In this document: positions 15,361 to 16,230 of the stretch, piece after piece
Numbering within the stretch: the first letter of the stretch is position 1
Layout of the letters: each line of letters begins with the position of its first letter
Origin: a virus
Strand: one strand, 5' to 3'
DNA: 31,573 nt
Virus record (IMG/VR): IMGVR_UViG_3300035698_009068
Span: 1-31,573 of that record
Made by a program: the position numbers and the translations under genes
Notes under the pieces: model-generated
Databases searched by the model: none
Told to the model about the DNA's origin: nothing
What the model saw: the letters and a program-made list of their open reading frames with translations, nothing else

Positions 15361-15623
15361 ATGATACTTGTAGGACGATGTGGCGATTGTGGCAAATCAA
15401 TATTTATAACGATGACGTTACACGATCATACTTTTTTATTGACGGAGGGGACCACAGGAAAGTATTCGACTATATGATAATTTCAGAGGATGAAGAAACA
15501 TTCTTAATGTATGGCTGTTGTGATACTTGTGTAAACGAATATCATCGAAAGAATATTGTAAGCAGATTAAAGAAGATGAATTTGTTAAAACCGGAACGGA
15601 AAAGGAAAGAAAATGAAGACTAA
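15361..15623 (+). CDS. Small zinc-ribbon-like protein interrupted by a -1 frameshift
   Basis: Two overlapping frames make sense only together. The ATG at 15361 has an ideal GAGGTGA site 6 bases away and encodes MILVGRCGDCGKSIFITM..., a C7-x2-C10 knuckle, but this frame stops at 15475-15477 after 38 residues. The -1 frame runs open to 15623 and holds the second pair, GCCDTCVNEYHRK. The zero frame passes through T TTT TTA at 15432-15438, a classical slippery heptamer in the correct phase. A -1 slip there gives an 87-aa protein with C7/C10 and C54/C57. The alternative GTG start at 15351 in the second frame lacks the first Cys pair. It may be programmed frameshifting, a T-run mutation or a sequence error. 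Its last bases overlap the next gene. Confidence 0.65.
15432..15438 (+). promoter_or_regulatory. U-UUU-UUA slippery heptamer
   Basis: The zero-frame codons read CAT ACT TTT TTA TTG, so the heptamer is in the X-XXY-YYZ phase needed for tandem -1 slippage, the same heptamer as HIV-1 gag-pol. No convincing downstream stem-loop was seen in the following 40 bases. Confidence 0.5.
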
Positions 15624-15876
15624 AATCCTCATTCTATTATTATTATTAGGGACGGTTGTCTCAGCTCAATTGGATTCGGATATAAATAATGATAACATAG
15701 TTAACATGAAAGACTTTGCTATCATGGCCAGCGAGTGGCTTCAACGGGAACCAGATTATTTATTAAAGATAAAGAAGTATGAGGGCAAGAGAGGCTTAAC
15801 AGTAAAAGAGAAACAGATGTTGCGGATGGCCCGCAAAAAGTATTTAACCTTTTTATTAATTTCTAACAGAAAGTGA
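15613..15876 (+). CDS. Secreted protein with a single dockerin-like repeat
   Basis: An 87-aa protein with an N-terminal signal peptide MKTKILILLLLLGTVVSAQ (likely cleavage after VSA). Immediately after it comes one dockerin-type calcium-binding repeat, DSDINNDNIVNMKDFAIMAS followed by EWL: the D-x-N-x-D-x-I-V-x-x-x-D loop and F helix. The C-terminal 40 residues are basic and unrelated. Such D-x-N-x-D-G-x-V-x-x-x-D-x-A-x-x-A-x-x-W-L elements are very common at the ends of exported planctomycetal proteins. GGAAAGAAA precedes the ATG. In a phage it may be a secreted accessory protein acting in the periplasm or at the cell surface. A single repeat (half of a normal dockerin) makes cohesin binding uncertain. 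Confidence 0.8.
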   Translation: MKTKILILLLLLGTVVSAQLDSDINNDNIVNMKDFAIMASEWLQREPDYLLKIKKYEGKRGLTVKEKQMLRMARKKYLTFLLISNRK

Positions 15877-15887
15877 GGCATCATGAA

Positions 15888-15944
15888 ATGAACAAACGTA
15901 AGCCAAGACGTGTAGAAGAATTGGAAGAACGTATCGCACCGTGA
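15888..15944 (+). CDS. 18-residue peptide ending ELEERIAP
   Basis: The ORF encodes MNKRKPRRVEELEERIAP and then stops. A basic cluster followed by (L)EELEERIAP resembles a short N-terminal motif that I recall at the start of large exported proteins in Planctomycetes and relatives, where the chain continues. Here it stops exactly at the motif. It sits between the dockerin gene and the tRNA-like gene; GTGAGG lies 14 bases upstream, so the ribosome site is weakly placed. It may be a fragment of a host gene end captured next to a tRNA, or a tiny expressed peptide. Confidence 0.5.
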   Translation: MNKRKPRRVEELEERIAP

Positions 15945-15954
15945 TTATTGTATC

Positions 15955-16042
15955 CGCAGGATAGTGTAATGAGAGCACGCCCGCCTTGTAACCTTTGTGT
16001 TAAGATTAGCGGTAAGAGTAGGTTCAATTCCTACTCCTGCGA
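15955..16042 (+). tRNA. tRNA-Thr(UGU)-like gene with a 17-base insertion in the anticodon loop
   Basis: Acceptor arms CGCAGGA (15955-15961) and TCCTGCG (16035-16041) pair 7/7, with A16042 as discriminator. D arm: GTGT/GCAC (15964-15967, 15975-15978). T arm: GTAGG, loop TTCAATT, CCTAC (16018-16034). Anticodon arm: CCCGC (15980-15984), loop start CTTGTA (anticodon TGT at 15987-15989), and 3' strand GCGG (16009-16012). Between them are 17 bases more than a 7-base loop allows; the excess can be placed after position 37, the classical intron site. The D loop has GA where GG is usual, pair 27-43 is mismatched, and CCA is not encoded. A T6 run follows. It may be an intron-bearing, pseudo or non-translating tRNA-like RNA. 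Confidence 0.75.
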
Positions 16043-16056
16043 TTTTTTAAGGAGAT

Positions 16057-16230
16057 ATGATGGATGATAATTGTTGTGAAGTAAAACGTTGTAGTCGTAT
16101 GCCTTCCCTCACATACGCTGCTAGCAAAAGCGGTCGAAGTAGGGGTGTATGTAACCGTCATTGGTTACTACATTGTGAAGGAAATATTAATTTGAAGAGT
16201 AAAAAAACATATAAAAAAACAAAAAAATAA
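16057..16230 (+). CDS. Small Cys-rich, zinc-binding-like protein, 57 aa
   Basis: The ORF encodes MMDDNCCEVKRCSRMPSL..., then GVCNRHWLLHCEG and a Lys-rich tail. The arrangement C-C-x4-C ... G-x-C-x2-H-x4-H-C fits a small zinc-binding fold. AAGGAGATAT directly before the ATG is one of the best ribosome sites of the island. It begins 15 bases after the tRNA-like gene. Function unknown; small zinc proteins in phages often bind nucleic acid or host enzymes. Confidence 0.7.
   Translation: MMDDNCCEVKRCSRMPSLTYAASKSGRSRGVCNRHWLLHCEGNINLKSKKTYKKTKK

What the first reader, a model, noticed from the sequence alone, without database searches (positions are those of the whole stretch)
15955..16042. tRNA-Thr(UGU)-like gene with 17 extra bases at the classical intron position
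Acceptor, D and T arms pair well, and the anticodon stem CCGC/GCGG is preserved, but 17 extra bases lie in the anticodon loop and can be placed exactly after position 37. Bacterial tRNA introns are normally self-splicing and far larger. The preserved stems suggest either an unusual processing event or a tRNA-like RNA with another use (decoy, packaging mark, primer or nuclease bait). The D loop also lacks the usual GG and pair 27-43 is mismatched.
Basis: seen in the sequence. Interest (0 to 1): 0.78.

Follow-up and report, generated by a model that had tools for sequence, protein, structure and literature searches.

The report
Phage tRNA-Thr gene with disrupted anticodon loop
A phage that probably infects planctomycete bacteria carries one threonine tRNA-like gene whose anticodon loop is interrupted by 17 extra bases; no machinery to remove them was found and no relative shares the gene, so it is most likely a decaying tRNA gene rather than a new kind of intron.

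Summary
Rfam scores 15955-16042 as tRNA (50.3 bits, E 4e-8), with 20 of 21 cloverleaf pairs intact and 17 extra bases in the anticodon loop. Without insertions allowed ARAGORN finds nothing; with them it reads tRNA-Tyr(GUA) plus 15 nt. Planctomycete tRNA-Thr(UGU) arms (CCCGC-CTTGTAA-GCGGG) match the phage arm apart from the insert, which favours Thr(UGU), inserted after position 37 or 38. The host is probably a planctomycete: a planctomycete-type export leader lies 10 nt upstream and related phages have a bacterial-type replisome. No tRNA-splicing endonuclease was found in the window, five related phages or seven planctomycete genomes, while four archaeal controls ring. The strict BHB splice motif is absent; a relaxed form occurs in 4% of shuffled inserts. 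The acceptor stem lacks bacterial Thr identity pairs, the D loop lacks GG, and relatives lack the gene. Best reading: an acquired phage tRNA-Thr(UGU)-like gene disrupted by a small insertion, non-decoding and probably decaying. A decoy role or an unknown excision is not excluded.

The parts
15955..16042 (+). tRNA-Thr(UGU)-like gene with interrupted anticodon loop
   Evidence: RF00005 50.3 bits, E 4.1e-08; 20/21 pairs
15955..15961 (+). acceptor stem, 5' strand CGCAGGA (C1-G72, G2-C71)
   Evidence: sequence; pairs with 16035-16041
15964..15978 (+). D arm, GTGT-AATGAGA-GCAC, 7-nt loop without GG
   Evidence: sequence and pairing
15980..15984 (+). anticodon stem, 5' strand CCCGC (27-31); C27 faces U43
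15985..15991 (+). CTTGTAA, the loop of planctomycete tRNA-Thr(UGU), anticodon TGT at 15987-15989
   Evidence: identical to the loops of L158 and L175
15992..16008 (+). 17-nt insertion CCTTTGTGTTAAGATTA (equally 15991-16007)
   Evidence: extra relative to planctomycete tRNA-Thr(UGU)
16009..16013 (+). anticodon stem, 3' strand GCGGT
16018..16034 (+). T arm GTAGG-TTCAATT-CCTAC
16035..16042 (+). acceptor stem, 3' strand TCCTGCG, and discriminator A73; no CCA encoded
15888..15944 (+). ORF MNKRKPRRVEELEERIAP*, planctomycete-type export leader without a protein behind it; host clue
   Evidence: motif in Planctomycetota and not in Bacteroidota
16057..16230 (+). 57-aa ORF conserved in relatives upstream of the DUF2213-like gene; marks the locus
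   Evidence: tblastn in L008, L009, L010, L014, L024, L027

Best explanation
It is an accessory phage tRNA gene of tRNA-Thr(UGU) type whose anticodon loop has been split by a 17-nt insertion. The transcript would still fold as a cloverleaf, but the 24-nt loop cannot present a normal anticodon, and no route for removing the insert was found. It is therefore most likely non-decoding and in decay: a recently disrupted tRNA in a variable cargo region between the MuF-like head gene and the DUF2213-like gene. Shown: the cloverleaf, the insertion, the match of the anticodon arm to planctomycete tRNA-Thr(UGU), absence of the tRNA in sampled relatives, no splicing endonuclease in the genomes searched. 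Inferred: the host, loss of function, recency of the insertion.
For: RF00005 match with 20/21 pairs intact. The Thr(UGU) anticodon arm of planctomycetes is the same apart from the insert. No insertion in 104 tRNA calls from four planctomycete genomes. A narrow pattern for Thr(UGU) with a comparable insert finds no such tRNA in IMG/VR or 392 Planctomycetota genomes (the one hit, L223, shows no T arm). No PF01974 endonuclease in 13 genomes or records while 4 archaeal controls ring. Bacterial Thr identity pairs G1-C72, C2-G71, G4-C69 (PMC9976931) are replaced by C1-G72, G2-C71, A4-U69; G18G19 missing; 27-43 mismatched. Relatives with 67-82% identical capsid protein have no tRNA there.
Against: All four helices are kept, and the acceptor stem differs from planctomycete Thr by paired changes, which looks like past or present selection on structure. 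No intact sister copy was found, so the order of events is not shown. The host is inferred. There are no expression data.
Confidence: 0.64

Rival explanations
1. A tRNA-like RNA kept for a use other than decoding: the cloverleaf is processed by RNase P and CCA-added, and serves as decoy for anticodon nucleases or other tRNA-binding proteins, or as a processing signal in the operon.
For: 20/21 pairs and a standard T loop are kept despite loss of Thr identity and of the normal loop. Phages are known to use altered tRNAs against tRNA-cutting defences (PMC10264068).
Against: No second case with this insertion found; no anticodon-nuclease or repair gene seen among the window proteins scanned. Intact helices are also expected if the disruption is recent.
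Confidence: 0.15
2. The extra bases are an assembly or sequencing error in a metagenomic contig, and the real gene is an uninterrupted tRNA-Thr(UGU).
For: The joined flanks are called as tRNA-Thr(tgt) by ARAGORN; single contig, no reads available.
Against: A clean 17-nt insertion exactly in the loop is an unusual error; the missing GG in the D loop and the odd acceptor pairs remain unexplained.
Confidence: 0.07
3. A true short intron, cut out by a protein nuclease of host or phage that is not recognised here and religated, for example by host RtcB.
For: Canonical position and archaeal-like length (PMC4090602); a relaxed BHB-like fold is possible; RtcB is present in 5 of 7 planctomycete genomes.
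Against: Strict BHB absent, the relaxed form is in 3.9% of shuffled inserts; no splicing endonuclease in 13 genomes or records; no introns in planctomycete tRNAs.
Confidence: 0.06
4. An archaeal-type tRNA-Tyr(GUA) with a 15-nt intron in a virus of archaea.
For: ARAGORN call; C1-G72, A73, G34 and U35 fit archaeal and eukaryotic Tyr identity (PMC9976931); one capsid relative sits in a Thermoplasmata bin (L083).
Against: The anticodon arm matches bacterial Thr(UGU); it needs a C31 x A39 mismatch; related phages have a bacterial replisome and the window has a planctomycete-type leader.
Confidence: 0.05

Closest known systems
Bacterial tRNA-Thr(UGU), planctomycete type (L158, L175)
   Same: Anticodon stem and loop CCCGC/TCCGC-CTTGTAA-GCGG, cloverleaf, T arm layout
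   Different: 17-nt insertion, C1-G72 and G2-C71 instead of G1-C72 and C2-G71, shortened D loop, no encoded CCA
Archaeal pre-tRNA with canonical 37/38 intron
   Same: Insertion position and length
   Different: Strict BHB motif absent, no splicing endonuclease found, host probably bacterial
Bacterial and phage group I introns in tRNA anticodon loops
   Same: Location in the anticodon loop
   Different: 17 nt is far below any self-splicing size
Phage tRNAs with anticodon-loop mutations that evade anticodon nucleases (PMC10264068)
   Same: Phage-encoded tRNA with an altered anticodon loop
   Different: Changes described there are mutations in decoding tRNAs; here the loop is split by 17 nt

Membership tests
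Bacterial tRNA-Thr(UGU) | Cloverleaf scoring as tRNA | tested here: met
   RF00005 50.3 bits, 20/21 pairs
Bacterial tRNA-Thr(UGU) | Seven-base anticodon loop with UGU at 34-36 | tested here: not met
   24-nt loop in the gene; UGU present but followed by the insert
Bacterial tRNA-Thr(UGU) | G1-C72 and C2-G71 identity pairs | tested here: not met
   C1-G72, G2-C71 in the phage; identity set from PMC9976931
Archaeal or eukaryal intron-containing pre-tRNA | BHB motif: 4-bp helix with two 3-nt bulges at the splice sites (archaeal) | tested here: not met
   Strict form absent; relaxed form with 2- and 4-nt bulges fits, chance 3.9%
Archaeal or eukaryal intron-containing pre-tRNA | Splicing endonuclease available | tested here: inconclusive
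   PF01974 in 0 of 13 phage records and planctomycete genomes, 4 archaeal controls positive; the true host is unknown and virus records may be fragments
Archaeal or eukaryal intron-containing pre-tRNA | Insert removed from the RNA | not testable with these tools
   No RNA data
Group I intron in tRNA | Catalytic core, some 200 nt or more | tested here: not met
   Insert is 17 nt; the tRNA is the only Rfam hit in the window
Bacterial tRNA-Tyr | GUA anticodon with long variable arm (class II) | tested here: not met
   Variable loop is 4-5 nt; the planctomycete tRNA-Tyr are class II
Nuclease-evading phage tRNA | Functional decoding tRNA resistant to an anticodon nuclease | not testable with these tools
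   Needs cleavage and charging assays

The most novel reading that the evidence does not exclude
A bacterial virus carries a tRNA with a 17-nt intron at the canonical position that is cut out by an unrecognised nuclease and religated, for example by host RtcB: protein-dependent tRNA splicing in bacteria.
Probability: 0.05. Interest if true: 0.88.

Novelty: new member of a known kind. Interest (0 to 1): 0.28.

Why it matters
As read here it is a minor case: a phage tRNA gene disrupted in the anticodon loop, useful as a reminder that tRNA finders run without insertion options miss such genes and that isotype calls on them are unstable (Thr versus Tyr). If the insert were shown to be spliced, it would to my knowledge be the first sign of protein-dependent tRNA splicing in bacteria, so one RNA experiment would be worth doing.

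Tried and rejected
Variable-arm (class II) reading: rejected, the extra bases lie between the two anticodon stem strands and the variable loop is 4-5 nt. An alternative anticodon hairpin inside the insert (TAAC/GTTA, 6-nt loop): not a canonical anticodon loop. Insert as a copy of another window sequence: none below 5 mismatches, as in shuffles. Codon supply: ACA is 23% of Thr codons in the phage, not enriched. Relatives by DNA patterns of the 5' half, 3' half, D arm and anticodon arm in IMG/VR: no homologous tRNA with an insertion; L113 and L125 share D-arm letters because the patterns chose them. BLAST of the tRNA against phage records: no match over 28% of the query, most listed ones the T-arm and acceptor end of tRNA-Met. 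Search of the four genomes of the class holding the leader motif with the tRNA sequence: none. Phage homologue of the dockerin-like ORF: none. Literature search for phage tRNA insertions with the terms tried: nothing; for bacterial tRNA introns only general papers.

Full report
What was checked. The window is a virus record of 31,573 bases from IMG/VR. Protein families show a tailed phage: terminase, portal, MuF-like head protein, a DUF2213-like protein (phrog_760; the DUF name is my own reading), capsid and tape measure. Rfam finds a single RNA in it, a tRNA at 15955-16042 on the plus strand, 50.3 bits, E 4.1e-08. ARAGORN in its default mode finds nothing; with insertions allowed it reports the same span as tRNA-Tyr(GUA) with a 15-nt intron. 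The RNA folds better than shuffles, modestly (z -2.1).

Isotype. Read alone, the gene allows Thr(UGU) with 17 nt or Tyr(GUA) with 15 nt and a C31 x A39 mismatch. I compared it with 104 tRNA calls from four planctomycete genomes (some tRNAs were fetched more than once). Their tRNA-Thr(UGU) anticodon arms read TCCGC-CTTGTAA-GCGGA or CCCGC-CTTGTAA-GCGGG, the phage arm CCCGC-CTTGTAA-[17 nt]-GCGGT. In an alignment of the joined flanks the four best planctomycete matches are all Thr(UGU); with the loop masked this preference disappears, so the isotype rests on the anticodon arm. The joined flanks are called tRNA-Thr(tgt) by ARAGORN. Thr(UGU) is favoured. The insert may start after position 37 or 38; the sequence cannot tell.

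Host. The short ORF ending 10 nt upstream of the gene, MNKRKPRRVEELEERIAP, carries a motif that occurs in 7 of 246 Planctomycetota genomes and 0 of 247 Bacteroidota. In nine of the twelve listed hits, from four genomes, it stands near the start of a long ORF followed by a secreted-looking protein, as an export leader would; the other three look like chance. Three of the four genomes of one small class have it. A dockerin-like ORF lies next to it (just under the Pfam cut-off). Related phages with 67-72% identical capsid protein carry DNA polymerase A, DnaB-type helicase and RecA. A planctomycete host is likely, not proven. Capsid relatives in genome bins are scattered over many phyla, among them one Thermoplasmata bin, two Planctomycetaceae and three Bacteroidetes bins.

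Can the insert be spliced? Its position and length would suit an archaeal intron (PMC4090602). Three tests speak against it. The strict BHB motif is absent; a relaxed version with 2- and 4-nt bulges exists, but 3.9% of shuffled inserts have it too, and I looked for it after seeing the sequence. No tRNA-splicing endonuclease (PF01974) is found in the window, five related phage records or seven planctomycete genomes, while all four archaeal controls are positive. None of the planctomycete tRNAs examined has an intron. RtcB ligase is present in five of the seven planctomycetes, so religation would be possible if something cut the loop; nothing known to do so was found. The phage records may be fragments, so absence there is weak.

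Could it work as a tRNA at all? Bacterial ThrRS uses G1-C72, C2-G71 and G4-C69 among others (PMC9976931). The phage gene has C1-G72, G2-C71 and A4-U69, while the planctomycete tRNA-Thr listed begin with GC (L175 after one extra leading G in the call). Together with the missing G18G19, the 27-43 mismatch and the insert, a decoding tRNA-Thr is unlikely. The intact helices, with paired changes in the acceptor stem, suggest it was under structural selection for some time, so the insertion is probably recent. This step is inference.

Relatives. Fifty related phage records were searched: one tRNA, a weak tRNA-Met(CAT) in L024, also lying between the MuF-like gene and the DUF2213-like gene, upstream of the homologue of ORF 16057. 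Closer relatives with that homologue (L008, L009, L010, L014) and the more distant L027 have no tRNA there. The region is a variable cargo region. A pattern for Thr(UGU) tRNAs with a 10-24 nt (IMG/VR) or 8-30 nt (genomes) insert found no other case; it is narrow, fixed to one stem sequence, so it does not measure how common such insertions are in other tRNAs.

Verdict. A real tRNA-Thr(UGU)-like gene with a disrupted anticodon loop, most likely a decaying accessory gene (0.64). A kept non-decoding role (0.15), an assembly error (0.07), excision by unknown proteins (0.06) and an archaeal-type tRNA-Tyr (0.05) remain possible; the rest covers readings not considered.

Noticed in passing
window 15888-15944 and 15613-15876: A planctomycete-type export leader peptide cut off right after RIAP, and next to it a dockerin-like ORF with a signal-like start: possible host-derived secretion signals in a phage cargo region.
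   Followed up: partly
L221:2294-2377: An 84-nt RNA in an unrelated 59-kb phage contig matches only the two ends of tmRNA (RF00023, 42.2 bits, E 9e-14, just under the cut-off), as if the mRNA part were missing.
   Followed up: no
L125:1311-1382 (-): Phage tRNA with an 8-base anticodon loop TTGTAAGA; ARAGORN calls a four-base anticodon gtaa.
   Followed up: no
L113:8483-8576 and L116:10649-10740: Two phage tRNA-Ile(UAU) genes of 92-94 nt with a class-II-sized variable region and a C31 x A39 mismatch.
   Followed up: no
L114:1552-1638: Phage tRNA-Asn(GUU) of 87 nt with a class II variable arm, looking like a tRNA-Tyr body with an Asn anticodon.
   Followed up: no
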